Shown here: positions 5,135 through 63,970 of the stretch, piece by piece | Position numbering within the stretch: the stretch's first letter is position 1 | Layout of the letters: each line of letters begins with the position of its first letter | NCBI RefSeq assembly: GCF_025766255.1 | Contig: NW_026516808.1 | Location: forward strand, 1-64,000 | Length of the DNA stretch: 64,000 nt | Source: Zychaea mexicana | Lineage: Eukaryota; Mucoromycota; Mucoromycetes; Mucorales; Lichtheimiaceae | Direction of reading: 5' to 3' | Translations under genes and position numbers: made by a program | The notes under the pieces: generated by a model | The model's input: only the letters and a program-made list of their open reading frames with translations | What the model was told of the DNA's origin: nothing | Database searches by the model: none

Positions 5135-5532
5135 CTATTTATACTTTAGCTGAAATGGATGATTCAGACACTAAGTTACCGAGCTCTCTACTAGATAAAA
5201 GTCTTGGCCAAATAAGTTGAGATGTCCGCTCTCTGAATGAGCTATTCAGTACAGGCCATCTGGAACACTTTTGCATGATATGCCTTGATGTGTAAAATCT
5301 GTAAACAAGTCTCAGGAAAAGTAGACATCTATTATAGACAGGGATGCATCTAATCGCGCGAGGATGGTATTTGTTGTTTTTCTTTCTTAGCTATGTGATG
5401 CAGATATAGTTTTGCTTTGAAATAAGTGAGACATCATTGTCAGATTCGGGGCATGTCTGTTATATAACATCCATGAGTGCGTAGTACATGACAGAATACA
5501 TAGATGCTTGGAGGAAAGAGAGAAAATTATAT

Positions 5533-13478: not shown

Positions 13479-13914
13479 CTCCCAATACCAAAACCCTTAT
13501 GTCCACCCCATTTTAACAGAGGGGAGTCCCACCCCTAAAACTGGAAATTTTAAACTCCAATTTCAGAGTCACGGCATATGGTGCGTCAGTGCTGTGAGCA
13601 GTGCCTTTTATTCACAAACTGCAAAAAAAAAGAAGTACTGGTCATTAATAATCAATATACAGTGCTTCTAACAAGCAATGTCGCAGCTAGCCAAAAACGA
13701 AGTCGTTGGCCAATCAAAATCGATGTCGTTGGTTGGTCAAAATCAATTTCGCACTTTTGGAAATGGAAGTCGTATTTTTAGAAACCATATCATTTGCATT
13801 TGAAAATGATGTCGTGTTACGATGATTTCTTGGCACTCGAAAAAATATAAAAATGAGGTCTTTCTTCTCCTGAGTCTGTTTTTTTTCTTTTCTTCAATTG
13901 CTTAAATTTTAATA

Positions 13915-15196
13915 TGAGTACAATATTTTTATTTGAAGATGGGCATAGGAATGTCGTTGATGAGAATGGAGGTCCTGAACCCATGGAATATATTGTTGAT
14001 CAGAATGAGTTCATTTAGAGCCGATTGCGACTCACAGTGAGTACTTGAAAAATATGCCCTCTAGTGAATCTTCATCTGTTTGTCCAATACTGACAGAAAA
14101 GCCAAAAGATGAAGACATTCATATGAAAGAGGTAAACACAAAGCGCGATTATGTGCGCTATTCCCTCCAAGATAAGGTTCGCTTTTTCGAACTGAAGATT
14201 GAAAAGTATATGAGTGCATCAGCTACAGCGAAGCAGTTGGGTATTCACATTCGGACTGCTCAGAGATGGGTTAAACAGTACAATATGTGTCCTGATAGCA
14301 TTTTTGAGGTTTGTAAGCAAATTGGTCGTAAATGTATCTTGAGCAAAGAGCATAAAACAGCTGTTATCAATTTTATTGATAGTAACCCTTCTGCTTCTGT
14401 TGTTGAAGTAACCAGGCATTTGTTGAATCGGTTCGATGATCTGAAAGTTTCACGTAGCACTGTTTACAATTTCATGAAAAGTGAATGCAACCTTTCGTTG
14501 AAGAAGGCTGACTTTCATTCTGTTGAAAGGAACAGTCCAGCCAAGGTTGAAGAGAGACATGATTGGGTTCGTAAGTGGGAAAATACTGATATGAATTTTT
14601 TGACGAATTGCGTGTTTCTTGACGAGTCAGCTTTCGATATCAATATGAAACGCTCTAGGGCTTGGTCCAAAAAAGGTACGCGTGCCATTGTTACCCGACT
14701 AGTAACGAGAGCAAACACGACGTCGATATTAGGTGCCATCTCTGCTGAAGGCTTGATTACAATTGGTGTCAAAAAACCGAGACCAGCGAAGAAGAGAAAG
14801 GCTGAAGGATACATAAGCTCAGGTACCGTAATGGGTCATTATATCAGTTTCTTAAAAATGACTCTTGATGAAATGGACAAGCATCCTCACATGAAAGGCT
14901 ACTATGTAGTCATGGATAATGCACCAATCCACACACATGAAAACATAAAGAAGTATATTGAGTATCGAGGATACAAATGCATGTATCTTCCTACTTACTC
15001 CCCTGAGCTTAACCCAATAGAACAATTCTGGGCAGTGGCAAAGAGTAAGGTTAAGCGTCATAGGTTTTTGCAGGAAGACACTTTATCAAAAAGAATCACG
15101 GAAGCTTGCAATAGTGTGGAGAAAAGTCATTTCCGAGGTTTCGTTTCGCATTCTTACAACTGCTTGGATAAATGTCGAAACAAAGTGCCCATATAA
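13915..15196 (+). CDS. Tc1/mariner (DD34E) transposase, arm 1
   Basis: The main frame (14045-15196, up to 383 codons; first in-frame ATG at 14054) has tandem helix-turn-helix regions (about residues 41-79, SASATAKQLGIHIRTAQRWV; 101-145, RSTVYNF). The catalytic core follows: FLDESAF (D193), VVMDNAPIH (D291), SPELNPIEQFW (E326). D291 to E326 leaves 34 residues, so DD34E. Upstream ATG 13915 opens a 34-codon peptide (MSTIFLFEDGHRNVVDE...) homologous to the start of the transposase in composite element 2. It is out of phase with the main frame through an in-frame TAG at 14017, in both arms, so a small intron or a shared frameshift lies at 14010-14045. A one-base C insertion at about 15188 ends this copy 14 codons earlier than arm 2. 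Otherwise it looks intact. Confidence 0.85.
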
Positions 15197-15331
15197 TGGC
15201 AACCAACGACTTCATCAAAAGGCAACAATACAGAAGTAAGAACCACGTAAGTATCAATCAGGTAAGTAATTAGCAATTTTATTTCACTTTTTTAAGAGTA
15301 TTACATCGACTGTCAGTCATTTTATGAGAAA

Positions 15332-15684
15332 GCAATCTTCAAATCAATATGCAGTAATGGATAAAAACAATAACTTGGTAGTGATTTTCCTATCAATTAG
15401 ATTGTTTTGCAACTGGTTTTGTGACAAGTGCAGCTATTCAAATTGCATCGTTGAAATAATGGGAAAATGAATGAACAGAAGGTTTCAGTTCACTTTTTTT
15501 TTTACAAAATCAAGTATAATTTACTGCTTTACATAGCATTTTCATACTGACGAGATTGGTTAAGTGTATCCATAAGATGTATTAGGTAAAAAAGGAATCA
15601 TGTAAAAAAAACGAATCACAAGCAAAAGAAAAAAAAAACGAATCGAAAGGGGAAAATCGTAATTCATTAAGCAAACGTGTTCCT
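15332..15684. other. cargo spacer
   Basis: Non-coding DNA just inside the left arm, containing A/T runs. Nothing recognised. Confidence 0.5.
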
Positions 15685-17521
15685 TTACTGTCCATATCGC
15701 ACAGAACAGCTTCTTGCTCGATCTTTGCTTCCGTCAATCAATGTTTCCAAGCTTGCTAATGTTACTTTGTATCTACCAGCTATGGTGGCAGAATCGTCGG
15801 ATTTTCTGCATAGGCGCCAAAATGCCTCGTTGATACCAAGCAACAATTTCATGTTCTTCAAGGATATGAAAGATGGAAGATCATCCAAGGATTGAGGAAA
15901 ACGAAAATGTGCAATTTCAAAAAAAGTGTAAATCCCATTGGCAACCAAGCGAGAGACAAAAAACGTGATGTTAAACCCTACCATGTGAAGAGATAAAAAT
16001 ATATTAATATCCTATGTGGGTGATTTGATTTTTTGACATACCATGAATTTGAAAAGCAAGCGATCCATCCAATTTGTTCACGTCGATTGCATTTTTGTTG
16101 AAAATTGCCAATCGAAGGGTGTCCATGCAGAGAAGGTATTTGCTTGTGTTGCCTTAATTCACTTTCACTTCACCGTGCCCAATACTGTGATCATACTCGA
16201 GTTGTTGTTTTTTGGCGATGATTGCATCTGGTCGCAATTTTCCACCTTCGATTGGAATGGAATTCGTCCAACGTAAATGTACAAGCCTATCTGGATCATA
16301 GATTAAGCATGAACGTAGAGGGTCAAAGTAAGTACCCCATAGTTCGCTTTCACTGATGTCATTGTTGTCTTTCAATGGTGTGTTTGGTAACTTTTGAATT
16401 CTGATCATAAAAAAAAGAGATTAATAAAGCATTATGGATAAAAAAAAAACTAAGCACATAAATATTGCTTACAAATTGGAGATTCCACGAACAAGACGTC
16501 TAGGACCATAATCCATATCAGCAGACATGACTGTAAGTTCAACAATGGCTTGATCTCTTGTTTTAATTGACATACTGAGATTCGTGATGGTTTTTGTGAG
16601 CGTCAGATAATACTGATCATTGAAATCGAGATTGTAGTTCATCGATTCGGAAGACAAAGACGCTGCTAATTCTTCCAATAATTCAATGGAAAATACCTTC
16701 GTGGCAATAGAACTGTGCTGATGCTTGTTTAAGATCAAAATATGCGATAAAGCTGCCAATTCATTGATATAGGGTTCAAGCGGAAGCTTTGTGTGTTTGT
16801 TGATCAAATCATGGACAACTGACTTGTAATTCTCGAACATGAGAGTAAGGTTTTTCCCGCGGAAGATCCAGGGGTTAACATTGATATTGTCTGAATTAAC
16901 ATTGGTATCATTGTTGCTGGTGATGGACGAGGTCGGGTAAAGCTGACAACTTCTATCATCATTGCTGAAAGAGTCGTCGTCGGTTGTTTCTTGAGCATCA
17001 TTCGCATTGATATTTTCTTGAGTGTCAATAGTACAGGCTGTTTCTTGGTATTCAGTAGTGTCTTTGGTGCTTTCTTGAATATCAGCAGTGTCGTCGGTAG
17101 TTTCTTGATCGTCAACACCATCGAGTGTTTCTCGGACAACAGTATTGGCCTTAGCATTCAGACTTCGCAACCTGTGTTCAGTAACAGAGCCAATAAACTT
17201 TATACAAGCTCCATCTGTTCGCAATATGATATCCAATTCCTCTTGCTCGTTCCAAAACCGTTGATAATCAGCAGAACCAGTCCAAGTCTTGTACTCCATT
17301 CTAAGGCGTTCGTAATGTTGAGTGTTACTGATATACTTTGAGAGAATATTGAGGTATCGTTGTTGCGAACTACACTTGTCCAAGCATTGGAACTTTTCAA
17401 TAAACTTTCTAAAAGTAAGATGGCGTAGGTTGTCTAAGCACCATTGTGCATCGTCTGGTACTTGAATCTTTGGCTTCTTTCTGGAGAGTGTAGATGCCAA
17501 CGACTTTTTTTTGGGTGGCAT
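15685..17521 (-). CDS. cargo gene: PD-(D/E)XK nuclease-like protein, three exons, one stop
   Basis: Exons: 17521-16473, 16400-16042 and 15977-15685. The introns (72 and 64 bp) have GTAAGC..AG and GTATGT..AG borders and the phases agree. The N-terminus is basic (MPPKKKSLASTLSRKKPK). Residues about 130-195 are an acidic repeat rich in TTDD/QET units. The C-terminal domain has SESELWGTYFDP (E369), LVHLRWTNS, then RPDAII (P407-D408) and GHGEVKV (E427-x-K429). This is the E...PD...ExK arrangement of PD-(D/E)XK phosphodiesterases. Downstream come LCMDTLRLAIF, SLAFQIHG and FEIAHFRFPQSLDDLPSFI. I recall similar proteins as a large unnamed family in mucoralean fungi. A TAA (16154-16156) two codons after the ExK motif breaks this copy. 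The ATG lies 38 bp from the MULE-USP target duplication. The nuclease role is inference. Confidence 0.6.
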
Positions 17522-17559
17522 TTCAAGGAAGAAACATACAGTAATCTACACTGCAAAAG

Positions 17560-17775
17560 GGGTACTGTAAATTTTTACGTACTTCACCTTCCTTTTTTGG
17601 ATTTTTACGTACTTAGCCTCCAAGTTTTTATGTACTTAGCCACTCAAGTACGTAAATCGGTTCTGACGCTGTATATTTGTACTATAAAATTTTACGTACT
17701 TCCTATTTGGGAATTTTACGTACTTCCGATTTTACGTACCTGCTGTATTTGATTTTTACGTACCTTGAGCGCTAA
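17560..17775. repeat. subterminal ACGTAC repeats of MULE-USP
   Basis: Repeated (a/t)TTTTACGTAC(t/c)T words spaced about 10-40 bp apart, mostly in one orientation, with one reversed copy (CAAGTACGTAAA, about 17644). Matching inverted words (TACGTAAAAATT) occur at 21306-21335 and 21448-21460. Confidence 0.7.
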
Positions 17776-18198
17776 GAGGACCATACATGTTGTTGTTGTC
17801 ACTTTTAAAATTTATTTTTTATGCCAACTATTACCACTCTACGCACTATAAGCATACCCTATCCACTTGCATAATAATCACACAAGTACATTTTCTTCTT
17901 TTGATTTTAAGAACGTTGTAGCACTCTTTGTATATTATTAAGTTTCAAGGGAGGGTAGGAAGAGCAAACTATATTTTAAGGAAAAAAAAAAAGGTACATG
18001 GATTTAGCAGAAAGGGGAAGAAGCAAAAAGGGAGATTTATACTTGGGATATTATTTATATGATAAAGAGAAGTAGAATATTCTTATTTTCCTGTCTTTTG
18101 CAATAGGTGTAATACTACTGTAATAGGCTAACAGAAATATAATAGCGGGTTAGCATCAGCTTGACGCTTTATCCCTGTATGGAGATTTATATAGCTCA

Positions 18199-21100
18199 TT
18201 ACCGCTCAATTTCTTTTTCTTCTTCTTCCGTAATAAACGGTTTGTCAAGATGATTATTGTCCTGTGCGAGTTTACGATATATGACGGAGTGCGTGTATGC
18301 TACCTTGCCATGGATTTTCTTGAGTTTTTTAGCGACACGCTTCGTATCATCGAACTCGTAAATGTTGTTGTCAGATGCTCTGCATATTGCTATATAGTGA
18401 AAACCAGTAGGTCGTGTACAGTAGATTCTGCCACATAGGTGATACTCTGCTTTCATTATGCTTATATGCTCTGGATTATAGACCATGCTGGATTCGTTGG
18501 ACGCGTATTTTTCACGCTACTCGTGATCTTTTCCTAGTATTCAATCGTGAACGATGATGAAGCTGGCATAGCTGACAATGTTTTGCATATAAAGATTTCT
18601 GCTGCTGGTTTCAACACGAGCTTGTATAATCTTTTGTTGCAGTAACTGGTCAAAGCTGCTTTCGGTGGGATCTTCAAGGTCCTCCTCATCGAAATCCTTA
18701 TCCGTCAAGTGGAAGATGGATGACCGGTTTCGAATCTTGTCTCCTTGAACATAGGCCTCAGCCATCCATGTTTTGGCGCTATTGTCCTTAGGAGTAGATA
18801 TTTTGGTGGCCTGTGGTCTTGTCTTGAATTGTAGATAGGCACGTAAAATATCATTATTCTTAAGTATACATTGGAGCACGTCTGCTGGGTCTCCGAATAC
18901 CCCTTTGCGCTCGATATTTAACTTTGCACCGTGGTCCCAGATATACTGGCGGAAGGACAAGACAGGACCTGTAAAGTCCTGCTGTCTGGACGCACTCCAA
19001 AGGTCTGATAGTAAATGTGCTCTTTCATCATTATCGACTTTGGAGGTTCAGGAATGTAAGGCAGAATCACCCTTAACATTATTTGTAAAAAGCAGTCGAT
19101 GAAGCAAGCATTATCAGCATTGGGAACAATAGCGATTGGATACTTGTTTAGCGAGCTCAAATGCGAAGAACGTTCACTAAAGGTATCAGGTATACATAAG
19201 ATTTACATTAGGCTTTAAATAATTTCTCTCTCAATTTACGTACGTCATATTTTTCGTTGCATTTTTCTTCGCTCTATATTCTTGCTTCTTTTGCTGTTTG
19301 AACAACTCTCGGATATCAGATAGCTTTTTCGCGCGTTCTTCTCGAGCATTGGCCGCTTCTTTTCTTTTTCTGTCACAATCTTCAGTTGCTTCTTTTTGAC
19401 TACTATAATCTTTTTTTTCGGTATCCTCTCGATATTCAGGTATAGCCAAAGAGTCTATATACATGTTTTAATTAGGTTTCAATTACTGTATTCTCAAACT
19501 CTTACAAACAACAAGCTTATTGTTTTACCAAGTGAAGTATCATTAGTTGTTTTTCTTGCTCTTTTGGTTGGCTCATTTTGATCTGAATTATTTTCTGTAT
19601 AGCGCTTTCTGGTATTGGTGGTAGAACTTCTTGACAATAATTGCTTGAGTTTCTCTGGAGGACGACTGTCGCTTATGTTTTTTCTTTTTAGGCGCTTTGA
19701 AAGGACTGCATATATAAAGCGTAGAATAAGCCAGATGCTAACTAGTTTCGATGCAATACACACCCTCACTACGCTAAGAAGAAACTTACGAAGGCGCAGA
19801 TATCTTATAACGTATATTTTTGCCAGCAAGAACATGTTCCAAGTTACTCTCTTCATTTCGCATGTAGTTGAAAAGTTCAGGTAACTTTGAAAGAATCGGC
19901 TTGGATTGCTGAACGAAACGGTAGATATTACGATGGAATGATTCTACGCCGTTCGTTGTTCTTGTGGCATTGAGTAAAAGCTCTTCATGCATCGTCGTTT
20001 TCGAGCGAAAGATCATACTAGCAACGCCAGGTCGAAGCCACCAGTTTAGCCATTTTGAAGTATGCGGGAATTCTTTCTCCATTTGAGCGGTTACAACATC
20101 AAACATCTGTTCCACCGTCGTCTCATACATGACCCTGGTGTATTCCAAGAATATCCTTCGGCGTTCCACTGGTACAACATCACCTATTTTTTGTATACGT
20201 TCAACCGACTGTTTCCAGTGAAAATAGCAACCCTTTAAGTAAGTCTCCCCACTTTTGGCACCGGGAAAAATGTTGCTGAACGCGATAAAAAAGCCGGTTC
20301 TTTGCGCTTGGGAAAAGTCCATCATTATCCCACACATAGATGGTTCACCGTCGTCGTTTTTCTTTACATTCAAAACTTTGAACATTGTCGTGAAGAACGA
20401 AACGAAGTTTTTAGTGGTTAAACCACCAAGAACCGCTTGGAAAACTGGAACATACTTTTCCAGTTTTTCTTGATATATGACAGAGTTGCAGAGGTAATAG
20501 CCGTCGCCAAAGCAGGAGTAAGTGACATCCATTGGAATTGGTTGGCGGCTGTAGTCAACATCGTTCAGAATGTACGGCGAAGCGAAAGGAATGCAAAAAC
20601 TGTCAGGATGGAGGTCGAGTGGTGAACGAAGATAACCGGGATACTCGACATTGAGCTTCATTACTGAAGTAGTTACTGTTTCGATGCTGGGTATACCTTT
20701 AGCGTTGAAGCCATTGGCTGCAAGGATGTTGCGGCGGTGATACGCAACTTTACCAGCATGCTGTAAGTCGCTGTCGATCTCGCGCAGAGGTTGTAGTGGG
20801 TTCATTGGTCTTTGAGAGCTGGTGCCTATAACAAGAGCCATGGGTCTTTCCTGCGGGGATCGCAAAACTCTCTCGGCAAGTTTGGCGACGGAGCTCTTGC
20901 TGATATGAACGGCTTCATATCGACTGTGCGAATGCACACCACAATGTTCGACACTGCCCACACTGCCAACGAACTTGAAGTGGACACGAACCTTACAGGG
21001 AATATGTCGCAACTCCGTATCGCACTTGACACACTTCTGCAGCTTGATAAGTGCTTTGGTGCTGGCTGGCTTGACCGGAAGGTTCTTTCGTACGCAATCG

Positions 21101-21303
21101 TCTTTTACACATTGCACGGCACCGAGACAAACCTTCGTGATGCTAACACCGCTTTCAGTTTTCTTTTGATTTTGCTGATGTAGCTGCCAGCCGATGTCAG
21201 TGGGTCGCGCATAAGTTTGGTCCGTTTTACGAATTAACGTGACCTGCTCAATCTCATCGCCGTCGATCCATTTTGTAAATTCAGATTTCATGTTGTAGGA
21301 CAT
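18199..21303 (-). CDS. MULE transposase fused to a USP-like deubiquitinase domain (frameshifted)
   Basis: The start ATG 21303 is chosen because the longer open frame begins outside the element. Exon 1 (21303-19800) has a Cys/His N-terminal domain (C-x5-C-x4-C...CVKCDTELRHIPC...EHCGVHSH, GCM/FLYWCH-like), then the transposase core: PMDVTYSCF, CGIMMDFSQAQ, GCYFHW and TTNGVESFH (D, D, C-x2-H, E). An intron (19799-19706) leads to a basic stretch (19705-19550) and a Lys/Glu-rich coiled coil (19464-19250). The C-terminal part resembles a USP ubiquitin hydrolase. It has a Cys box NACFIDCFLQIML (Cys at 19106), a middle block, a FIIVHD strand, and a His box GFHYIAICRASDNNIYEFDD (His at 18399). USPs use N-x-C and GHY/YxFDD motifs in the same order. 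A frameshift at about 18960 and two stops at 18538-18495 separate the pieces. Deubiquitinase activity and its role are inference. Confidence 0.6.
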
Positions 21304-21479
21304 GGTACGTAAAGGTTGATGTACGTAAAAATTGGTGTCAGTGATTTGTATGACTAGTGAGTGTAAGTAGTCAAGGAACGCACTCAGAAAAAAGAGACCG
21401 GTTTTCCTGCCAGAGCGACTGCTTTTCCTGCAATCACCGAAAATGGAAGTACGTAAAAATTCGCGCACCCCTGCAAAAG

Positions 21480-22130
21480 AAGAAAACAAGAAGAAAAAAG
21501 AGTCACACATGAACTTTGAATCGGCGATTTTTGTGAAAAATTCTCATGATTACTGGGATGTTTTGTTTTTCTTTATTCCTTTGGCTTAAATCTTCCGGTT
21601 GAAAGGTAATGATGGTAAGAGACTGATTCGGACTACAATTGTGGAGTTGCAGTGAGGTTAGTAGTCAGTGAAGGTCTTGCTTTTGTAAGACTGGAGATGA
21701 ACGTCTATGTTACTGGTGTATGCATCGTCGTTGAACGGACTTACATCGGTTTCACTACAAAACTGGGAGCAATAGTTAAGCAGTCTCCTTTTTCGTAATG
21801 TTTATGGATACGTCACACTAATAGTGTCTTTTTTTATGGAGAATTGGACAATTAGAACCATTGCAAAGATGGTAGACCCAAGCCTTTCGTCACATTGTAC
21901 ATACTTGCTTTTTGGCCTAGTTTCAAAATCTATTTGGCGCAGATGTATCAATAAAATTAGAACGCAATAGATTTGCACTTTTGTCCTTTATATTTCCAGA
22001 ACTAATCCCAATAACTTAGCCTGCAACACTTTCTGTCAGCTGTAACGACACAACTTGCCTGGTTTTCATGTTTTTTTTTCGTGTTGCTGGCGTTGTGCAA
22101 ATCAGTTTGCTTTTTACTTTCATGGTCGCT
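21480..22130. other. cargo spacer
   Basis: Sequence upstream of the cargo gene before the MULE inserted, up to the right arm. No gene recognised. Part may be the promoter of the 15685-17521 gene. Confidence 0.4.
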
Positions 22131-22217
22131 CATAAAAGGACTGACAGTCGATGTAATACTCTTAAAAGAGTGAAATAAAATTGCTAATTACTTATCTGAT
22201 TGATACTTACGTGGTTC

Positions 22218-23411
22218 TTACTTCTGTATTGTTGCCTTTTGATGAAGTCGTTGGTTGCCATTATATGGCACTTTGTTTCGACATTTATCCAAGCAGTTGT
22301 AAGAATGCGAAACGAAACCTCGGAAATGACTTTTCTCCACACTATTGCAAGCTTCCGTGATTCTTTTTGATAAAGTGTCTTCTTGCAAAAACCTATGACG
22401 CTTAACCTTACTCTTTGCCACTGCCCAGAATTGTTCTATTGGGTTAAGCTCAGGGGAGTAAGTAGGAAGATACACGCATTTGTATCCTCGATACTCAATA
22501 TACTTCTTTATGTTTTCATGTGTGTGGATTGGTGCATTATCCATGACTACATAGTAGCCTTTCATGTGAGGATGCTTGTCCATTTCATCAAGAGTCATTT
22601 TTAAGAAACTGATATAATGACCCATTACAGTACCTGAGCTTATGTATCCTTCAGCCTTTCTCTTCTTCGCTGGTCTCGGTTTTTTGACACCAATTGTAAT
22701 CAAACCTTCAGCAGAGATGGCACCCAATATCGACGTCGTGTTTGCTCTCGTTACTGGTCGGGTAACAATGGCACGCGTACCTTTTTTGGACCAAGCCCTA
22801 GAGCGTTTCATATTGATATCGAAAGCTGACTCGTCAAGAAACACGCAATTCGTCAAAAAATTCATATCAGTATTTTCCCACTTATGAACCCAATCATGTC
22901 TCTCTTCAACCTTGGCTGGACTGTTCCTTTCAACAGAATGAAAGTCAGCCTTCTTCAACGAAAGGTTGCATTCACTTTTCATGAAATTGTAAACAGTGCT
23001 ACGTGAAACTTTCAGATCATCGAACCGATTCAACAAATGCCTGGTTACTTCAACAACAGAAGCAGAAGGGTTACTATCAATAAAATTGATAACAGCTGTT
23101 TTATGCTCTTTGCTCAAGATACATTTACGACCAATTTGCTTACAAACCTTAAAAATGCTATCAGGACACATATTGTACTGTTTAACCCATCTCTGAGCAG
23201 TCCGAATGTGAATACCCAACTGCTTCGCTGTAGCTGATGCACTCATACACTTTTCAATCTTCAGTTCGAAAAAGCGAACCTTATCTTGGAGGGAATAGCG
23301 CACATAATCGCGCTTTGTGTTTACCTCTTTCATACGAATGTCTTCATCTTTTGGCTTTTCTGTCAGCATTGGACAAACAGATGAAGATTCACTAGAGGGC
23401 ATATTTTTCAA
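22218..23411 (-). CDS. Tc1/mariner (DD34E) transposase, arm 2
   Basis: 397 codons, almost identical to the arm-1 protein, with all three catalytic residues (FLDESAF, VVMDNAPIH, ELNPIEQFW) and both helix-turn-helix regions. It lacks the extra C of arm 1, so it runs on to KVPYNGNQRLHQKATIQK. The upstream peptide at about 23543-23440 carries the same in-frame TAG as arm 1. It faces arm 1. High identity over coding and non-coding parts implies recent duplication or continuing gene conversion between arms. Confidence 0.85.
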   Translation of the reverse strand: MKNMPSSESSSVCPMLTEKPKDEDIRMKEVNTKRDYVRYSLQDKVRFFELKIEKCMSASATAKQLGIHIRTAQRWVKQYNMCPDSIFKVCKQIGRKCILSKEHKTAVINFIDSNPSASVVEVTRHLLNRFDDLKVSRSTVYNFMKSECNLSLKKADFHSVERNSPAKVEERHDWVHKWENTDMNFLTNCVFLDESAFDINMKRSRAWSKKGTRAIVTRPVTRANTTSILGAISAEGLITIGVKKPRPAKKRKAEGYISSGTVMGHYISFLKMTLDEMDKHPHMKGYYVVMDNAPIHTHENIKKYIEYRGYKCVYLPTYSPELNPIEQFWAVAKSKVKRHRFLQEDTLSKRITEACNSVEKSHFRGFVSHSYNCLDKCRNKVPYNGNQRLHQKATIQK

Positions 23412-23777
23412 GTACTCACCGTGAGTCGCAATCGGCTCTAAATGAACTCATTCTGATCAACAATATATTCTATGGGTTCAGGACCTCCATTCTCATCAAC
23501 GACATTCCTATGCCCATCTTCAAATAAAAATATTGTACTCATATTAAAATTTAAGCAATTGAAGAAAAGAAAAAAAACAGACTCAGGAGAAGAAAGACCT
23601 CATTTTTATATTTTTTCGAGTGCCAAGAAATCATCGTAACACGACATCATTTTCAAATGCAAACGACATGGTTTCCAAAAGTGCGAAATTGATTTTGACC
23701 AACCAACGACATCGATTTTGATTGGCCAACGACTTCATTTTTGGCTGGCTGCGACATTGCTTGTTGGAAGCACTGTA

Positions 23778-24887: not shown

Positions 24888-27305
24888 ATGTCCAACAACA
24901 ACAGCAACACGCCTATTATTCTCGACCTCGAAAACGAGAGTGTTCCAGAGTGGCTACCGATTGCAACCTACAGAGCAACGATCGAGCGCGCACCTCAAGT
25001 GTCTGGTCATTGCTGGGTGAAAAAAGATCACCGAAATGGCAAAGGAATTCTGATCTGTGAAAGCAATGGCAATGAAATCCAACAAGCGAATGACGCGACG
25101 ATTTCGGGAGAAGTTGTTGAGGAAAACGAAGTAGAAGAAAGTAGAAATATAATAAATCAACAATGAATACAAATAAGGAAAAATTAATTATGTACCTGCA
25201 TTAATCTATCTCACAATATAACATCACTTATAGACATCCACCCTACCAAAAGAGCTCGTAAAAGAAAAGTGAAATGGTCCGAGCGTTATGTTTGCCATCG
25301 TTCTGGAGGCGTCCGTGTGCGCAACGATCGTGTCAAAGGTGGTGCATCAAAGTCGATCCGTATCCGCCAAAGATCAAAGAAGATTGGCTGTCCAGCTCGC
25401 TTCAGAGCAGTATGCTATGAAGAGGAGCCAGAAAAGGTGTATTTGTTCTTTGCTGGAGGTCATCCAGATCATACTCCTGGTAGCGGCGAAGATGTCAAGT
25501 ACTTGCCCAATTCACAAGAAATCAAGAGCAAGATCCTTCAAGAATTGCATAAGGGATACAACGTACGTGACGTGCGCTTGTATATGCAGCGTGAATACTG
25601 CACTATTGGTGACAACAGACGTGAAGCATACGTGAGCACAGTAGATGTATACAACATTTACTACAAGTATCGTCAAGAGAAATCACAGAGAAATGATGAT
25701 GACTTCTCGTCTTTGTCTTTGTGGTTGCAACACCTTGAATCGATCGGATATTTTGTGTGGATCAATGAAAAGATCACCATTGATGAAAACCAGCAACAGC
25801 AAGCAGTAAAGTGTCTTACCGAAGATAACTTTACATTCGGTTTCTTTGCTCCTTGGCAGAAGGATTTGCTCTTGAATGCCAAGTTTATTTCTCTTGATGC
25901 CAGCCAGTACTCTGATGGTATTTTATATACCATGGTTATTCGCCATCCAGTTGCAGCTCGAGGTGTTCCAGTTGCCTACCTCTTTACCGATACTACTGCC
26001 TCTGCTCCCCTTGGTACCTGGTTCCATCAGCTTGCTTCCCTTGGTGTAAACCCACTTCGCATCACTATTGACTGCAGCCTGCCTGAGGATAATGCCATCC
26101 ACGCTGTCTGGCCCTCATGTACGATCCAGTTTTGCACCTGGCATATCATGCGCTCATGGATGAAAAACGTCCGTTCCAAGATCAAGTCGTCGCCTGGTAG
26201 AAGCAAGGCCATCGCCATGCAGATTGCCCGTGAGAAGCTACGCGCGTTGATGTACAAACGTAATGTTGATACATTTCAACAACTGCTCCACGAGTTTTTG
26301 TCTACTTTTGGTAGATACCAAAAGCCCTTTATTACTTACTTTCAGAAATACTGGGTTACTGGTGAACAAGGCTGTGATCGGTGGGCTGCATGCTACCAAC
26401 CTGCAGTTTACACGAACATGGAGACAAACAACTATGTTGAGTCATGGCACAACCAGCTGAAGACAATTTATCTGAAGCGCAAACGTGTCCATCGTCTTGA
26501 CTTGTTGATGAGTATCCTGACGTTCGATGTCGAGTTTGACGTCCAGCAAGAAGTCAAACGTCTAACGTACCGAGTTGGGCGTATGAGCAAGGATGAACGG
26601 CATCTTCGTGTGCAGGAAATAGAGGCTGAGACCGTTGATGAACAGCTGTTGTCTGCAATGGTGAATGTCAGTATGGAGGACGAGTTCGTTGTCAGCTCCT
26701 TTCAGTTGGATAGCATCACCTATATGGTAAGCAGTATATCTCTTCAATCTTCATCCAGTTTATATCCTCGATGATTACCATAACTCTACAGTACCTGTGG
26801 TAAGTATTGACTTCTTTTTATTTCCTGCACTTTTAGGTGAAGGTCGAGGATGGGCAGCTGGTATCTTGCTCGTGCCCTGCTTTTGAACGTTGGCATCGCC
26901 CATGCAAGCATATGTTTCTTGTTTGAACGGAAGGAGAAGGATGTAAAAGTTCGCCCATCATTGGAAGCATGGCATACTGCATTGCAAACTGCTGCCACCA
27001 GCACATCAACTGATCCAAGCCTTCAGCAACAGCAAAATGAACAGCAGGATGTCCAATCCGAAATGGAGCAAGAACTATCACCAACAGATAGTTTTGCTAA
27101 AGCAATCCAACAGCATACAGCAACAATTACTGCCTTAAAACGCAAGTTTGAAAGCAGAATGGTTCAAGCACGCAACCACGAACAATTGAGCTTGCTGACC
27201 GATCGTCTGCGAAAGCTCACCGAAGAAGCACAAGGCATTAGCAATGAGTTGTCTGACATTGCCGTTGTCCCCCAAAACTCCCGTTTCCGCCATCAAAATG
27301 CATAA
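24888..27305 (+). pseudogene. MULE-A transposase with SWIM zinc finger (one frameshift)
   Basis: Exon 1 starts at ATG 24888 (MSNNNSNTPIILDLENES). A second coding block begins near 25233 with a nuclear-localisation-like KRARKRK, then a zinc-finger N-terminal domain (YVCHRS...IGCPARFRAVC...HPDHTPG). The core has FISLDASQYSDG (D), ITIDCSLPEDNAI (D), QFCTWHIMRSW (C-x2-H) and NNYVESWHNQLK (E). Compared with the sister copy (LDATHDVSQY), four residues are missing after the first Asp, a 12-bp in-frame deletion. An intron (26727-26836, GTAAGC..TTTTAG) precedes a SWIM finger CSCPAFERWHRPCKH, after which a one-base shift (about 26918) moves the frame. The C-terminal Gln-rich coiled coil ends at 27305. 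The frameshift and the DATH lesion suggest this copy is inactive. Confidence 0.8.
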
Positions 27306-27523: not shown

Positions 27524-27796
27524 TGACCTGTAATAAATTTAAGACACAGAAAATGACCTTTATTTGATATATTAGAATATTGGACTGGATTGTTAAGTTG
27601 GATAAGATATACTCACCAGTACTACAGACTGGTCAAAGTTACAGATAAATGTGTGATATCAAGAGTAAAGAAAAAGGGTAAAGAATGATGAATAACAATG
27701 AAGTGGTAGAAATAGGGAATAGCAAAAGTCATGTGTACTACTGAAATGCAGAGTTACGGAGATACTAAAAACATCATTTTATCCCACTACGCATCA
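27524..27796 (-). repeat. 3' LTR of gypsy element
   Basis: 273 bp, TG...CA. It is downstream in transcriptional sense. Differences from the other LTR are single substitutions (for example atgtgtgat against atatgtgat). Confidence 0.95.
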
Positions 27797-28035
27797 TCAT
27801 CCCCCACTCTGTTTGCTGCCGACCCGATCGTCACCTTCAATTGGCAGTCGTGGTAGGCACGCAATGTGTCTTCATTAACCCTTCTCTTGAGTAGGCGGCC
27901 TGATTCATTGGCAAGTAAATAAGTTCTATTTGCAAACGCTGCCACCACCAAGAATCGCTCAGGTGTGTACTTGTGGTCGAGCTTGCCTTTACGGACTGCC
28001 TTGATTCGCAAAACATGTGAACCGGGTTTGAATTT
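27787..28035 (-). pseudogene. gypsy integrase C-terminal GPY/F-type module
   Basis: Continues the pol frame after a TAA at 28036-28038. The sequence has FKPGSHVLRIKAVRKGKLDHKY, then PERFLVVAAFANRTYLLAN and VNEDTLRAYH. This is the usual small beta-barrel after the integrase core. No chromodomain follows, in contrast to the second gypsy element at 57.7 kb. The stop means it is made only by read-through or not at all. Confidence 0.75.
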
Positions 28036-31000
28036 TGCTTAGAAATCTTGAACGAGTGATGGCTCCGGACAATCGATGAGTTCATCAGCCTTTATGTTTC
28101 GATTCACTAACTTGCAAAGGCGTTGATAGCCCAATGTAGACCCAAAAGCTGCCATAATGTCCTTGCCGTTGTCGCCTGGTGCTTGGCCGAACATCAATTC
28201 GAACGGCGTGATCTTGAGGGTTTCGTGGGATTTCGTACGATAGGAATACAAAACAGCAGGTAACATAGATTCCCATGTATCCGGATGGACTCGTACCAAT
28301 TTCCGTATAGCTTGCATAATGGTTCCTCCCATTTTTTCGTTCTTTCTGTTTGTTTGAGGATGTAGCGGCGCAATATAACGATGATGAGTTTGCAATTTCT
28401 TGAGAAACAATTCAATGCCTTGAGAAACAAAATGGGTGCCATTATCCGAGAGAAGATGGGTACTGGGACCGAACATGCTGAAGACATGGTCATAAAGAAA
28501 GTCGGCCACCGTTATTGCATCAGCCTTTTCGGTCGCAATCGCCACAGGCCAGCATGTAAAATGTTCTACCGCCAGTAGTACATATTTTTTTCCTGTTGGA
28601 GAAGGAGGTGTAATTGGACCCATGTAGTCAATTGAAAATTGTTCAAAAAGGTGCATCACCGGAACGCATCCTGGGACATACCGCCTTGGTAGGTTTGAAA
28701 ACAATTGGCAATCTTTGCACGACTTAATATAATGACACATGTCGTTATATGCGCTTGGCCACCAAAAAGAGGCAAAAAGTCGAGCCCAGGTACCATGTAT
28801 TCCATAGTGTCCATGACCATCATACAACATTTCAAGAACAGCATCGCGTTCATCAACATGTGGAATCTTGACCCAGCGATCACCAACAGCTCGGTACAAA
28901 TGCTCGTTTACCATCTTGAATCTTTTCGCCTTATGCTTGAACGCCTTAGAGAACGACTGGTTCGTTGGTGCGGCAAGATAATAGCAGATTTCCTGCAGAT
29001 CGGGCTCGTACCACGTTTCCATGATCAAGAAGTTGTGGTCGTATAAGTCCTCCAGATTGTCTTCGCCACTTGGTTCTCCTGGTACTTCCGCCGGTGGATA
29101 TCGCGAAAGGGCATCCGCCGCATTGTTCATTTTTCCAGGAATATGTCTCGTTTTGAAGCGAATTTCTTGACACGACAGAACCCAACGTTGTAGTCTCATG
29201 CTACTGTTGTTATCGACACCCTTAGAGAACAAGAAACGCACCGCCAAATTATCGGTCCAAATTGTAAACACTTTATCGAGTAGGTACTTGCGCAGCTTGT
29301 GCAGTGAGTAAACAATTGCAAGCAACTCCTTCTCAACTGTGGCATATCGCACTTCGGCTGGTTGAAGCTTGCGAGATAGGAAACATATTGGCTGCAGAGA
29401 ACCATCGGATTGTACCTGAGCAAGCACCGCACCAATGCCAATATCCGAAGCATCGCAGTACAGGTAGTATGGTTTGGATGGATCTGGGAAGGACAACAAG
29501 GAGCTTTTCGCCAAAGCCTTCTTCGTATCCAGAAAAGCTTGTTCCGTCATATCATCCCAAACGAACGACTGATTCTTCTTCGTCAAAGCAACCAAAGGAG
29601 CAGTAATCATCGCAAAATTCTGAACATGTCGTCGAAGAAAGCCGCATAGTCCTAAGAAAGCTCGCACCGCAGTAGGGTTTGTAGGTCTTGGATAGTCTTG
29701 AATACGTGACAAATGAGTGTCACTAGGATGTATACCTTGGGGACTGACGACAAATCCAAGTACTTCGACCGATTCACGCATGAAATTTGCTTTCTTGGCG
29801 TTGATTCGCACATTTACTTCTTCCAATCGCTGAAAAACTTGATGCAAGTGATCGAGATGCGAGTCCAAATCAGGGGAATATACAGTAATGTCATCAATGA
29901 ATGCCTCGACAAACCTTCCCAAGAAAGGTTGCATAGCCAAAAAGATAGCGCGAGACCATGTATGCGGACCATTGACTACTCCAAACGGGAGTACGGTATA
30001 TGAGTAGTTGCCAAAAGGGGTCGCGATGGTCAACTTGTTTCTTGATTCTTCGTCGCACTTGATTTGATTGAATCCCTTGAGAAGATCGATGGTAGTATAC
30101 ACCTTGGTACCACTTTTTCCTAGTTGTTCGACCAAAGAGGTAATATCCGGCAGAGGCCAGGTGTCACGCGCCGTCACCTTGTTCAATGATTGAAACTGCG
30201 TCACCAAGCGCAGTTCATTGTTCTTTTTACGCACATAACGACAAGGGAAGCTCCATCCTCCCATATCAGCGTTATTGCGATCATGGGTGGTTGGAACCAA
30301 AATGCCGTTCGAGACCATACTTTCAAGTTCTTGTTTTAGGTGTTCCAGCTCTGAATGTGACATACGCGGATTCGGACGATGATAGATAGGCTTTGCATCG
30401 CCGGTGTCAACATGGAAGGTCACTAAATTTGTTTGGGCCAGATGCTTGTACGAAGTGCCAAAGATGTGCTTGTAGTCTTGGACTAACTGTATGAGTTGAT
30501 CTTTGATGACTAGATTCAAATCACTTCTTGCCTGAATTTCCTCGGGCAGATCGCCAAGACGGTCGTCGATAGAGCTCTCACGCAAGAGCTCCTCGTCCTG
30601 CGATTCCTTTTGGACCGAAACCATTAACAGCATATCTTGTACATCGTCGCATTCAGATTCGTCTGCAGAATCAGTATCGTGTTCTTGTGGCATTGGTTTA
30701 TCCTTGGTTGGGATTGCGGTATATTCAACGTCCATTGGCCGAAGTCCATTGGGTGTATAGACCGACCACCGGTGGTATTTCCAACCGGTAACGACTTGAA
30801 GATCGTGAAGAGCATGCCTTCCAAGAAGCAAATCATAGCTTGTCACATCCAAGCAAAGAGCACTAAAATTCTTTGCTGGTGAGTCACCAATAGAGATGGA
30901 CAAACTAGGGACGCGACCAACAGGCGACGCATAATGACCGTCACCAAGTTGCAATGGACGATTGACCTGGTCAATTTCTTCGATTCCCAATTTCTTGATG

Positions 31001-32217: not shown

Positions 32218-32223
32218 TTCGTC

Positions 32224-32619: not shown

Positions 32620-32668
32620 AAACGACTGTTGTGGCTTCCGATCGGCTTGACGATAAATTGTAGTGCCC

Positions 32669-32686: not shown

Positions 32687-32692
32687 AAAAGA

Positions 32693-32965: not shown

Positions 32966-32970
32966 CCAAT

Positions 32971-58934: not shown

Positions 58935-59190
58935 CAGTCATTTCAGAAAGTAAAGTCGCTGATTTTGAGTTTGATGTCGCACCAAAAAATTGCCTGTCCA
59001 ACAACAATGTCAACTGATCCAAAAATAAAGACGCATTCACATAACATGAACTTCGTTTATTTCTACTTGTCGCTTAGTAATTATCCAATAAAAATTCTTA
59101 GCATTTTATTTTTATAAAATAGGCACGATTTTCTTATTGCTTCCTTTTGCGTTTCTTTTACCTATTTTTGTTTATTTTACAGACATTCAG

Positions 59191-60455
59191 AATGGATATG
59201 CAAATTTTTTATGAAGATGGACAAGGACATGTTGTTATTGAGAACGGAGTTGAGCCCTTGGATCTTGTTGTTGACGAGGAGTTATTCGCTAGCGAAACAA
59301 TAAGTTCTCGTACGTAATTCCTAGCAAATAAACCTCCTGAGAGACCTCATAATCCTGTAATGCATGTCGTTGCAGATGAGAGGAGCAGTGAGCATGTTTA
59401 TATGGAGCAATGCAACAAGCGCTGCTATAAAATTTATTCTGATGAAGATAAAACTCGATTTTTTCATTTATTTTTCAGCAAATGCTTGAATGCTTCTTCT
59501 GCTGCGAGACAATTAGGTATTCATATCCGAGCAGCACAGAGATGGGTCAAACGCTATTATGAAGATCCTGAAAGAATTTTCGAGAAGAAGAAAAAGTTAG
59601 GCCGGCGTCGTATTCTTGGAGAAGAGCATAAGCAGTTTCTTTTAAATTACATTGATGAGAATCCTTCTGCTGTTGTAACTCAAGTATCAAAAGTTTGACA
59701 CAAAACTTTGTGGATCTTAGTGTTTCTCGTAGCACTATCTATAACTTCATGACAACTGAGTGTAATATATCTATTAAGCAGGCACAATTCTAACCTGTAG
59801 AAAAAAAAAATTCAACAAAGGTACAATTGGGTACAAAAGTAGCAACAAACTGATATGGATTTCACAACAAATTGCGTCTTTCTTGACGAGTCAGCCTTTC
59901 ATATTAACGTGAAACGAGGCATGGCTTGGTCAAAGAAGGGAACTCCTGCAATAGTTACAGTGCCTACAACGAAAGCGAATGCAACATCGATTTTAGGTGC
60001 AATATCTGCCACTGGTTTAATTAATGTTAGTTTGAGAGTTCCAAAGCGCATTAAAAAGAGAAAGCTTAGACGCGAAACTGATGGTTATAGCATAGGAACA
60101 GTGACAGGACATTATTTGAGCTTTTTAAAGGCAACTCTAGATGAAATGGATAAGTATCTATAATTGAAAGGACATTATCTTGTCATGGATAATGCCGCTA
60201 TTCATAGCTCAACAGATATAGGGAAATATATTCACTCTAGAGGTTATCGATTTGTCTACCTTCCTCCATACTGTCTAGAACTAAATCCAATTGAACAGTT
60301 CTAGTCGGTTGTCAAGAGCAAGGTTAAGCGAAATAAGTTCCTGGAAAAAGAATCGCTCATGACTAGGATTAGTGAGGCTTGCGATAGCTTGTATCTGAGT
60401 GATTTCAGGCTTTGTTTCTCATTCTGCCAAATGTTTTGGCAAGTGTCTCAATAAG
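59191..60455 (+). pseudogene. Tc1/mariner transposase, left arm of element 2
   Basis: Begins MQIFYEDGQGHVVIENG, similar to the N-terminal peptide of element 1. Then helix-turn-helix NASSAARQLGIHIRAAQRWV, a second HTH SVSRSTIYNF, and the core FLDESAFHINVKRG (D), LVMDNAAIHS (D) and ELNPIEQF (E). Lesions: TAA at about 59317 (this arm only), a frameshift at about 59697, TAA after DEMDKYL (about 60161) and TAG replacing the Trp after EQF (about 60301). Inactive. Confidence 0.8.
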
Positions 60456-60956
60456 GACAGGTTATAAAAAAATAGCAAAACTAAATAAAAAAAGATGGTC
60501 AGACAGGTTAGATTGGTTAGATTGACTGGAATACAAACTAAAAATTTTGGCCAATTAAGGTTCAGAAAAATGAAACGGGGTTGTGAACCCAGGTTCACAA
60601 AAGATGAACCGCGGGTCACTTTTTTTTTGTTGTTGCCCTAACATTAAATATGAACATCACTCGTAACTAGGCAATCTGCATGCTTTTTTGCGAAGAGTAC
60701 AGTGATGATAATGCAACAAGATTGGCAAAAAAGATTGAACAACTTGGTGCTTTTAATGTGTGCTACGAAAATGATCCTAGGTGACCCGTTCTACTCACAC
60801 AAGCTATAATAAATTCTCAGCCTAGCATTTTAAAAAGATACGACACTTCATCTAAAGAAACATACAATGACAAAACTACGTGAATGACGAGAACATCAGC
60901 TACACTTTTCAAATCTCCCATTTTATTTATATCACATAAAAAATTAAACATCTTTA

Positions 60957-62279
60957 AATCTTTGAATAGGTTTTGATCTACAATTGAATGCATTCAAAAG
61001 AGATGGGTTTTCCAAAACAGAGTGTCTCTCGAATACGTGGACTTTGTGCTTGTACGGCAAGGTGTCAATAATGATTGTTTTTAAGTTTTCGTGGTTTCTA
61101 ATGAAAATATATATTGAGCATTAGGTTCACTTAACACATTTCTCAATAAGACTTACTCAATGAAGGTTGTTAAGTCATTGGTGTTTATGGACAGCCTGGA
61201 AAAGTCAATAGCCACAAGGCAAACGTTTTTTTCTGACGATTGAATATACGAGATCATGGCTAACGAAAAAAGATTAACATTAATAAATTGTTAAATAGCT
61301 GAAAACGTTTTTATACCTTGAGTGTTTCTAAACACGCATTCCAATCCATTTGACAAATCGTTGCTTTCATTCATATCTCTCGACGTAAGAGGTTCATCAG
61401 CAACTGAATAAGGTGACACAAAGATCTTGTCACATAACGATCTCTCTTGTAAACACTTCACCATGTGATTTAAAAGTGTTTTCCTGTTTTCATTGCTTTC
61501 GCAACCTGGGGATTTCCTAGTATATCCAATGATGGAAAGTTTTTGTTTCTTCAAAGATTGAATGTAGTTGTGGTAACGAGGTATATGATTGCGATGGCTT
61601 CTACAACATTGTCTAAAAATAAACAAATTAACACGCATATGTTTTTGTAAGTAGGTCAACGAGTTGTTACCTTGGTATTCATCTTTCATGACATAGAGTT
61701 TTCAATAGCGCTTATTGGATTCTCTTTCCCTTTTCCGGCTGATCGGCACATTCATGAAATCCACTTTTCTTTTTGAGCACCACAAAGCAAAAGCTACCTC
61801 CAATTTTCCATTCAAATATTGGTTTTTTGGAATGACTGACATATACACGTCTTTCATCGTTATATTTTCAAGAGAATAGCAAGCATTTTGTGGTTCAACG
61901 TAGGGACGAAACGCTTCATTTAGAAATGATACCACTTATGATTCCGAATCTGTTATTCAATATTTTAGTGTTAAAACAACTTGTTCAATTAAGAATAATA
62001 TATCAGCCATTGACCTTACTTACCAAGTTCGAATTTTATATTTTATTTCTTTTCAATATCAGGCTGTGAACGTGCAGTGAGATAACGTTTGAAAGTGAAT
62101 GAATCGTTGCGAATTACAAATAAATTGGCAAGAACGGGTCGCCTGGGATCATTTTCGTAGCACACATTGAAAGCACCAAGTTGTTCAATCTTTTTTACCA
62201 ATCTTGTTGCATTATCATCGCTGTACTCTTCGCAAAAAAGACATGCAGATTGCCTGGTTACGAGTGATGTTCATATTTA
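60957..62279 (-). pseudogene. cargo gene with resolvase-like segment, unknown family
   Basis: Pieces on the minus strand in order. First, CLFCEEYSDDNATRLVKKI, then FNVCYENDPRRPVLANLFV and IRNDSFTFKRYL (62260-62080). Next NEAFRPYVEPQNACYSLEN and VAFALWCSKRKVDFMNVP (61935-61702). Then 61689-61291 with KLSIIGYTRKSPGCESNENR, KIFVSPYSVADEPLTSRD. Finally 61258-60957 with NVCLVAIDFSRLSI and, after an intron (GTAAGTC..CATTAG), HENLKTIIIDTLPYKHKV. IGY-x-RKS, a D/E-rich middle and a VAIDFSRL strand recall the N-terminal fold of serine recombinases, but the match is weak. I recall related unnamed proteins in mucoralean genomes. Stops and missing start show decay. A truncated inverted copy of its 5' end is at 60640-60792. 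Confidence 0.45.
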
Positions 62280-62439
62280 ATGTTAGGGCACCAACAAAAA
62301 AAAAGTGAACCAAGGTTCACAACCCCGGTTCATTTTTCTGAACCTTGATTGGCCAAAATTCTTAGTTTGTAATCCAGTCAATCTAACCAATCTAACCTGT
62401 CTGACCATCTTTTTTTATTTAGTTTTGCTATTTTTTTAT

Positions 62440-63707
62440 AACCTGTCCTTATTGAGACACTTGCCAAAACATTTGGCAGAATGAGAAACAAAGCCTGAAA
62501 TCACTCAGATACAAGCTATCGCAAGCCTCACTAATCCTAGTCATGAGCGATTCTTTTTCCAGGAACTTATTTCGCTTAACCTTGCTCTTGACAACCGACT
62601 AGAACTGTTTAATTGGATTTAGTTCTAGAGAGTATGGAGGAAGGTAGACAAATCGATAACCTCTAGAGTGAATATATTTCCCTATATCTGTTGAGCTATG
62701 AATAGCGGCATTATCCATGACAAGATGATGTCCTTTCAATTATAGATACTTATCCATTTCATCTAGAGTTGCCTTTAAAAAGCTCAAATAATGTCCTGTC
62801 ACTGTTCCTATGCTATAACCATCAGTTTCGCGTCCAAGCTTTCTCTTTTTAATGCGCTTTGGAACTCTCAAACTAACATTAATTAAACCAGTGGCAGATA
62901 TTGCACCTAAAATCGATGTTGCATTCGCTTTCGTTGTAGGCACTGTAACTATTGCAGGAGTTCCCTTCTTTGACCAAGCCATGCCTCGTTTCACGTTAAT
63001 ATGAAAGGCTGACTCGTCAAGAAAGACGCAATTTGTTGTGAAATCCATATCAGTTTGTTGCTACTTTTGTACCCAATTGTACCTTTGTTGAATTTTTTTT
63101 TTCTACAGGTTAGAATTGTGCCTGCTTAATAGATATATTACACTCAGTTGTCATGAAGTTATAAATAGTGCTACGAGAAACACTAAGATCCGCAAAGTTT
63201 TGTGTCAAACTTTTGATACTTGAGTTACAACAGCAGAAGGATTCTCATCAATGTAATTTAAAAGAAACTGCTTATGCTCTTCTCCAAGAATACGACGCCG
63301 ACCTAACTTTTTCTTCTTCTCGAAAATGCTTTCAGGATCTTCATAATAGTGTTTGACCCATCTCTGTGCTGCTTGGATATGAGTACCTAATTGTCTCGCA
63401 GCAGAAGAAGCATTCAAGCATTTGCTGAAAAATAAATAAAAAAATCGAGTTTTATCTTCATCAGAATAAGTTGTATAGCAGCGCTTGTTGCATTGCTCCA
63501 TATAAACATCCTCACTACTCCTCTCATCCGCAATGACACGCATTACAGGATTATGAGGTCTCTCAGGAGGTTTATTTGCTAGGAATTGCATACGAGAACT
63601 TATTGTTTCGCTAGCGAATAACTCCTCGTCAACAACAAGATCCATGGGCTCAACTCCGTTCTCAATAACAACATGTCCTTGTCCATCTTCATAAAAAATT
63701 TGCATAT
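62440..63707 (-). pseudogene. Tc1/mariner transposase, right arm of element 2
   Basis: From MQIFYEDGQGHVVIENG (63707) to about 62440. It carries the same core motifs and the same three lesions as the left arm (frameshift after VSKV, stop after DEMDKYL, stop after IEQF), but not the left arm's early TAA (here MQFLANK). The frame 63756-63205 is the long intact N-terminal part. Confidence 0.8.
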
Positions 63708-63970
63708 CCATTCTGAATGTCTGTAAAATAAACGAAAATAGGTAAAAGAAACGCAAAAGGAAGCAATAAGAAGATCGTGCCTATTTTATAAAAATAAAAT
63801 GCCAAGAATTTTTATTAGATAATTACTAAGCGACAAGTAGAAATAAACGAAGTTCATGTCACGTGAATGCGTCTTTATTTTTGGATCAGTCGACATTGTT
63901 GTTAGACAGGCAATTTTTTGGTATGACATCAAACTCAAAATCAGCAACTCTACTTTCTGAAATGACTGTA

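What the first reader, a model, noticed from the sequence alone, without database searches (positions are those of the whole stretch)
13660..23775. A 10-kb Tc1-bounded composite transposon with a transposase gene in each inverted arm
TA duplication at both outer ends, a matching outer terminal repeat, and an uninterrupted target in the sister TIR at 33.6 kb show that the whole 10.1 kb inserted as one unit. The inner ends of the arms carry no terminal repeat, so these are not simply two neighbouring Tc1 copies. Tc1/mariner elements are normally 1-3 kb with a single gene. This one carries passenger genes, like a bacterial composite transposon. I know of no standard description of this layout in fungi.
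Basis: partly seen in the sequence, partly recalled or inferred. Interest (0 to 1): 0.9.

Follow-up and report, generated by a model that had tools for sequence, protein, structure and literature searches.

The report
Two-armed Tc1 transposons with swapped cores
The 10-kb block is one unit, a jumping gene of the Tc1 kind that carries an inverted copy of its transposase gene at each end around a middle gene likely to encode a DNA-cutting helper, and the same fungal genome holds relatives whose matching arms surround one of three unrelated middle genes.

Summary
Observation confirmed: 13660-23775 is one TA-flanked unit with matching outer terminal repeats, none at the inner arm ends, and a Tc1/IS630 (DD34E) transposase in each inverted arm. 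It is not an opportunistic composite of two Tc1 copies. A copy at C263 (6.2 kb) is the same unit with the same middle gene but lacks 3.9 kb, a later Mutator-like insertion (17560-21470, 9-bp duplication). In 14 of 14 sequenced pairs the arms are sisters; against C263, 16 sites group by element and none by arm side, so arms are homogenised. Thirteen of 14 two-armed middles carry exactly one of three unrelated genes: PD-(D/E)XK-motif (A), a second possible nuclease (B), or a protein whose predicted fold best matches serine resolvases (C). Core type does not follow the arm tree. C297 has a single transposase plus gene A between ordinary repeats, probably the simpler form. Precedents: ciliate Sardine/Thon/Tec, viral mariners, KolobokP; none seen with transposase arms and interchangeable cores. 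Helper function and gene conversion are inferred.

The parts
13660..23775 (.). Whole two-armed Tc1/IS630-type element (10.1 kb here; 6.2 kb without the nested insertion), TA at 13658-13659 and 23776-23777
13660..15328 (+). Left arm (terminal repeat plus transposase)
22129..23775 (-). Right arm, inverted copy of the left
13660..13685 (+). Left terminal inverted repeat
23750..23775 (-). Right terminal inverted repeat
14045..15196 (+). Tc1/IS630 transposase frame (HTH + DDE_3, DD34E); its N-terminal part is broken by a frameshift near 14.0 kb that both arms share
22218..23411 (-). Second transposase frame in the right arm, with the same N-terminal frameshift
15694..17521 (-). Middle gene A (E...PD...GEVK motif; open frame 16472-17521, further coding matches 15694-16411 with in-frame stops in this copy)
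17560..21470 (.). Nested Mutator-like element, later insertion, 9-bp duplication CTGCAAAAG at 17551-17559 and 21471-21479; the C263 copy has the empty site
58935..63968 (.). Second two-armed element of another clade in the same window, TA both sides, terminal repeat CAGTCATTTCAGAAAGTAAAGTCG
58935..60792 (+). Left arm of the second element; transposase match 59345-60412 with stops
62131..63968 (-). Right arm of the second element; transposase match 62491-63564 with stops
61297..61701 (-). Middle gene C, one coding stretch (serine-recombinase-like by the predicted fold of a homologue)

Best explanation
This is a Tc1/IS630-family DNA transposon in which the transposase gene sits, inverted, in both long end-arms around one middle gene, the whole being a single TA-flanked unit whose arms are kept alike within each element (likely by gene conversion) and whose middle gene likely encodes a DNA-cutting or recombining helper. 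Shown: the unit, its ends, the twin arms, the same unit elsewhere without the nested Mutator-like insertion, arm homogenisation after two copies split, and exactly one of three unrelated middle genes in 13 of 14 sequenced two-armed middles. Inferred: (1) transposase from either arm acts on the outermost terminal repeats and moves the whole by cut and paste; (2) the arms arose when a two-gene element (transposase plus helper, as in C297) had its helper-side end replaced by an inverted copy of its transposase-side end; (3) arms are homogenised by fold-back or inter-arm gene conversion, which would also let elements that share arms exchange middles; (4) the helper makes breaks or joints that favour re-copying of the element after excision.
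Confidence: 0.72

Rival explanations
1. Opportunistic composite transposon: two independent Tc1 copies in inverted orientation captured the DNA between them.
For: Two transposase copies flank non-transposase DNA and the outer repeats define the insertion.
Against: No inner terminal repeats; arms sisters in 14 of 14 sequenced pairs; the same middle-gene families recur; the C263 copy has the same arms and middle.
Confidence: 0.05
2. Long-repeat (foldback-like) growth of an ordinary one-gene Tc1: the terminal repeats expanded to include the transposase, and the middle genes are unrelated passengers of no use to the element.
For: Arm homogenisation and exact inversion fit foldback behaviour; most A, B and C loci lie away from detected transposases.
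Against: Exactly one of three gene families in 13 of 14 two-armed middles; gene A is open for 498 codons beside a single transposase in C297; A and C homologues occur in other fungi.
Confidence: 0.15
3. Assembly artefact: collapsed or hairpin reads created false palindromes.
For: In C147 the palindrome runs at least 1.5 kb past the terminal repeat on both sides, to the end of the fetched stretch.
Against: In 7 of 8 elements with both ends the inverted homology stops at the repeat/TA; arms within elements differ by 0.1-4.8%; the sister host repeat shows the pre-insertion sequence for the window element.
Confidence: 0.04
4. Middle genes regulate or target (DNA-binding adaptors) rather than cut or recombine DNA.
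For: The frame just upstream of gene A in C305 has weak, sub-threshold zinc-finger matches (E 1e-4 and 0.012); no Pfam nuclease or recombinase match.
Against: Conserved E...PD...ExK in family A; near-invariant G-Y-x-R-K-S motif and resolvase-like predicted fold in C.
Confidence: 0.3

Closest known systems
Tc1/mariner (IS630-Tc1) elements
   Same: TA duplication, terminal inverted repeats, HTH + DDE_3 transposase with DD34E spacing
   Different: Typical Tc1 members are ~1.3 kb with ~30-bp repeats and one gene, some with repeats of several hundred bp (PMC7325037, passages seen); here a full transposase lies in each of two arms around another gene
Ciliate Sardine, Thon and Tec elements
   Same: IS630-Tc1 DDE transposase, long terminal repeats (425 to ~700 bp) and a site-specific recombinase gene (PMC3464196, PMC7325037, passages seen)
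   Different: The passages do not describe a transposase inside the repeats, and the recombinase of Sardine, Thon and Tec is of the tyrosine type; here the C partner resembles serine recombinases and other elements carry A or B instead
[quoted passage not shown]
   Same: A shared transposase end joined to different partner genes, including endonucleases (PMC3627910, passages seen)
   Different: One transposase at the 5' end as described; no inverted transposase arms in the passages seen
KolobokP
   Same: Composite-like eukaryotic DNA transposon with transposase plus nuclease (PMC9587614, passages seen)
   Different: Kolobok transposase, direct (not inverted) end repeats that have their own terminal repeats, both genes in the middle
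Foldback elements (Tm1, Galileo, FARE)
   Same: Long inverted arms of variable length (PMC3169594, passages seen)
   Different: Other transposase superfamilies; the passage says transposases 'reside within their TIRs', which is ambiguous, and a gene copy in both arms is not stated

Membership tests
Tc1/mariner (IS630-Tc1) | TA target duplication and matching terminal inverted repeats | tested here: met
Tc1/mariner (IS630-Tc1) | DDE_3 transposase with DD34E-type spacing | tested here: met
   Pfam DDE_3 E 1e-28, IS630 family NF033545 E 4e-46; 34 residues between second D and E in 9 of the 12 frames given. The count misread C228 and C26 (369) and printed nothing for C297; a second attempt on C228 and C26 printed nothing
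Bacterial-style composite transposon | Flanking copies are complete ISs with their own inner and outer ends | tested here: not met
   No inner terminal repeat at up to 7 substitutions in the window
Bacterial-style composite transposon | Each flanking copy can move alone | not testable with these tools
   No arm-only insertion with two terminal repeats and a TA on both sides was found among the loci, but not all loci were fetched
KolobokP | Long terminal direct repeats | tested here: not met
   Arms are inverted
Serine recombinases (family C) | Resolvase-type catalytic-domain fold | tested here: inconclusive
Serine recombinases (family C) | N-terminal Y-x-R-x-S motif with the catalytic serine (role of the serine recalled) | tested here: met
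   G, Y, R, K and S of G-Y-x-R-K-S each in at least 90% of rows of a 14-row alignment
Serine recombinases (family C) | Full set of active-site arginines and strand-exchange activity | not tested
   No residue-level structural alignment was made; activity needs biochemistry
PD-(D/E)XK nucleases (family A) | E ... (P)D ... (D/E)xK motif in order | tested here: met
   Full pattern in 15 of 30 sequences examined (9 of 21 database proteins, 6 of 9 genome regions), partial in 2 database proteins, none in 13 (10 database proteins, 3 genome regions). P0005 and P0021 lack the stretch in the alignment; the other 8 database misses were not inspected. C305 misses the pattern by one residue
PD-(D/E)XK nucleases (family A) | alpha-beta-beta-beta-alpha-beta core fold | tested here: inconclusive
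   Model pLDDT 43, not usable

The most novel reading that the evidence does not exclude
A eukaryotic transposon family built as a platform: two self-homogenising transposase arms act as shared homology into which unrelated enzyme cassettes (two predicted nuclease families and a resolvase-like recombinase) are swapped, each cassette giving its carrier a way to copy itself beyond cut and paste, a Tc1 counterpart of Tn7 or Tn3 accessory logic.
Probability: 0.35. Interest if true: 0.85.

Novelty: new variant of a known kind. Interest (0 to 1): 0.64.

Why it matters
Tc1/mariner elements are textbook one-gene transposons. A lineage that keeps two full transposase copies as homogenised arms and exchanges the enzyme between them would show how cut-and-paste elements gain and swap helper functions. 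It would also make testable whether helper nucleases or recombinases repair or multiply transposon copies. It warns that transposase counts in such genomes overcount elements, and it suggests that some 'hypothetical proteins' of these fungi are transposon helpers.

Tried and rejected
Opportunistic composite: rejected. Cargo as host genes: rejected for 17560-21470, a nested Mutator-like insertion. Loose A loci as evidence against the link: two fetched ones (C20, C290) are A fragments inside a repeat that also holds a retroelement-like polyprotein frame (by eye, no family search); the other A loci without a transposase nearby were not examined. Pfam and NCBIfam for A, B, C: nothing above a curated cut-off. 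PDB sequence searches with A1 and A3: best E 1 and 0.26, taken as chance. Foldseek for C: top rows are KsgA-type enzymes at E 0.013 and worse; no serine recombinase among the 50 rows shown. Rfam on 13000-34500: 0 matches. Strand folding of the first 201 bases: z -1.39, not remarkable. Family B protein search: one homologue only. My notebook entry '12 of 16 downstream' was wrong; the output gives 13 of 16. Right end of the C157 element: not found. Literature: ten searches were answered and two failed on term format; I read listings, and passages of seven papers. They gave no description of Tc1 elements with transposase-bearing inverted arms; one fungal transposon survey is not held.
Full report
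OBSERVATION. The block 13660-23775 begins and ends with the same terminal repeat (CAGTGCTTCYAACAAGCAATGTCGCA) flanked by TA on both sides, and no further match with up to 7 substitutions exists in the window. The two arms are inverted copies, each with a transposase frame pointing inward. The block interrupts one ~0.9-kb inverted repeat of a Mutator-like host element; the sister repeat near 33.64 kb is uninterrupted there, with CA at the TA position. The host's transposase (25269-26774) has a sub-threshold Pfam MULE match (E 6.8e-5).

WHAT THE INSIDE IS. The best relative, at contig C263, is 6.2 kb. It aligns to the whole element except for 3.9 kb. At that place the window has a 9-bp direct duplication, CTGCAAAAG, at 17551-17559 and 21471-21479, and C263 has one copy. 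So 17560-21470 is a nested element that arrived later; its duplication length and its matching ends (GGGGTAC.../GGGGTGC...) fit a Mutator-like element (inference; its protein has no Pfam match). The element proper is 6.2 kb: arm, one middle gene, arm. The middle gene (A) is open for 350 codons and continues downstream, where this copy has an in-frame stop; C263 reads on at that place. Both transposase copies here share one frameshift in the N-terminal part that neither C263 arm has. This copy is probably dead.

HOW COMMON. The genome's contig C223 is 1,013,356 bp long, the length of the Zychaea mexicana contig that encodes P0022, so the window is most likely that fungus (Mucorales). Two transposase queries gave 114 and 105 matches, lower bounds because only 107 of 491 and 98 of 506 candidates were scored. 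Merged, they form 104 loci; of 30 adjacent pairs closer than 22 kb, 26 face inward, 3 outward and 1 is tandem. I fetched 14 of the two-armed elements. Ten group with the window element in the arm tree: eight have the terminal repeat with TA at both ends, C291 at one end, C223 at neither. Of the other four, the second window element (58935-63968, with a C-type middle) has its own repeat with TA at both ends; C305 and C68 gave one clear end each by pattern, and C287 none with fewer than 6 mismatches.

ARMS. In 14 of 14 sequenced pairs the two arms of an element are sisters in the tree, 95.3-99.9% identical. For the window element against C263, I counted columns without gaps: 1606 identical, 16 that separate the two elements with both arms agreeing, 0 that separate left from right arms, 0 crossed, 21 private to one window arm and 2 private to one C263 arm; 266 columns with a gap were set aside. 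With the C240 arms as outgroup, 9 of the 16 changed in C263 and 7 in the window copy. The single-copy middle is 98.3% identical, so the two are copies of one unit. Changes therefore became shared by both arms after the copies parted, in both lineages. Gene conversion between arms is the simplest reading; repeated re-formation of the second arm is not excluded. Transposases are under constraint (dN/dS 0.075-0.150 in the ten comparisons among C263, C240, C14, C212b and C228; the comparisons with C68 and C297 were saturated or near it).

THE MIDDLE GENE. Three unrelated families occur. A has 64 clustered loci, B 17 and C 29. Within 6 kb of a transposase lie 22 A (1.5 expected), 5 B (0.4) and 9 C (0.7); the expectation treats positions as uniform, which is rough, and the rest (42, 12 and 20) lie farther from any detected transposase. 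Of the 26 inward pairs, 9 hold A, 5 hold C, 4 hold B, 8 none; no pair holds two families. A closer tblastn search of 24 stretches found exactly one family in 17, none in 7 and two families in none. Among the 14 two-armed middles it found one in 13: A in C52W, C263, C240, C14, C305, C287; B in C147, C212, C68 and, weakly (E 1e-5), C13; C in C52W2, C223, C291; none in C262. Among 10 other stretches (one-armed or at contig ends) it found one in 4 (A in C297 and C303, C in C1 and C212b) and none in C2, C245, C251, C282, C26, C228. On the arm tree of 13 elements the core type needs 7 changes; 5000 shuffles gave 3 to 7, with 7 in 37%: core and arms show no shared inheritance beyond W and C263. Of 52 unpaired transposase loci, 16 have a middle gene within 8 kb; in 13 it lies downstream of the transposase and in 3 upstream (C168 twice, C254).

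THE SIMPLER FORM. C297 holds an element with both ends, 1753-5988 of L035: terminal repeats of 168 bp at 81.5%, TA on both sides, one transposase frame open for 417 codons (a longer match includes one stop) and one open 498-codon A frame facing it. C157 is similar on the left but I found no right end. I read the two-armed form as a derivative in which the end beside gene A was replaced by an inverted copy of the transposase end. That direction is inferred.

PRECEDENTS. Ciliate Sardine and Thon (and Tec) combine an IS630-Tc1 transposase, long repeats and a tyrosine recombinase (PMC3464196, PMC7325037; passages). Algal-virus mariners share a transposase end with different partner genes, including endonucleases (PMC3627910; passages). 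KolobokP is composite-like with direct repeats and a homing nuclease (PMC9587614; passages). Foldback elements have long inverted arms (PMC3169594; passages). Tc1/mariner elements are the most numerous transposons of the Mucorales genomes in one survey (PMC7928374; passages). I saw no description of full transposase arms with interchangeable cores in the answered searches; the library is open-access only.

VERDICT. A real, repeated architecture, better described as a two-armed two-gene Tc1 lineage with exchangeable cores than as a composite transposon. Shown: anatomy, insertion as a unit, arm homogenisation, core alternation. Inferred: conversion as the mechanism, origin from the one-transposase form, and helper activities.

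Noticed in passing
window 13489-33812: Host of the insertion: a ~20-kb Mutator-like element with ~0.9-kb inverted repeats (transposase 25269-26774) that also holds a Ty3/gypsy-type retroelement (by eye) with 276-bp repeats (27524-32968).
   Followed up: partly
L037, L038 (C20, C290): Fragments of middle gene A lie inside a repeat with a retroelement-like frame (99% alike over 2.2 kb between the two loci), which explains these two A loci away from transposases.
   Followed up: partly
L011 (C147): The palindrome runs at least 1.5 kb beyond the terminal repeat on both sides; an insertion into a palindrome, a larger inverted duplication or an assembly fault.
   Followed up: no
L013-L015 (C212:127725): Two elements abut back to back, sharing the TA between them; one has a C match, the other two B matches.
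   Followed up: no
L017-L018 (C13): An element of 16.7 kb with inverted homology of 8.0 kb per side at 99.9% and a spacer of only 0.7 kb.
   Followed up: no
L034 (C212:216053-217501): A 1.45-kb derivative with both terminal repeats and TA and no transposase frame of 100 codons or more: probably a non-autonomous foldback copy.
   Followed up: partly
P0001, P0002, P0006: Middle gene A is 94-95% identical at protein level in Rhizopus arrhizus and Apophysomyces sp.; possible horizontal transfer, not tested.
   Followed up: no
C168:51862-63456: Outward-facing transposase pair with two A matches between: opposite to the 26 inward pairs.
   Followed up: no
L032 (C68) 4116-5522; L029 1-1101: A Tc5/DDE_1-type transposase lies inside the C68 element, and a phage-integrase-type gene lies beside the C305 element (Pfam).
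   Followed up: no
window 13690-13820: The terminal region repeats short GTCG-containing words (e.g. GAAGTCGTTGGCCAATC), possible transposase binding sites.
   Followed up: no
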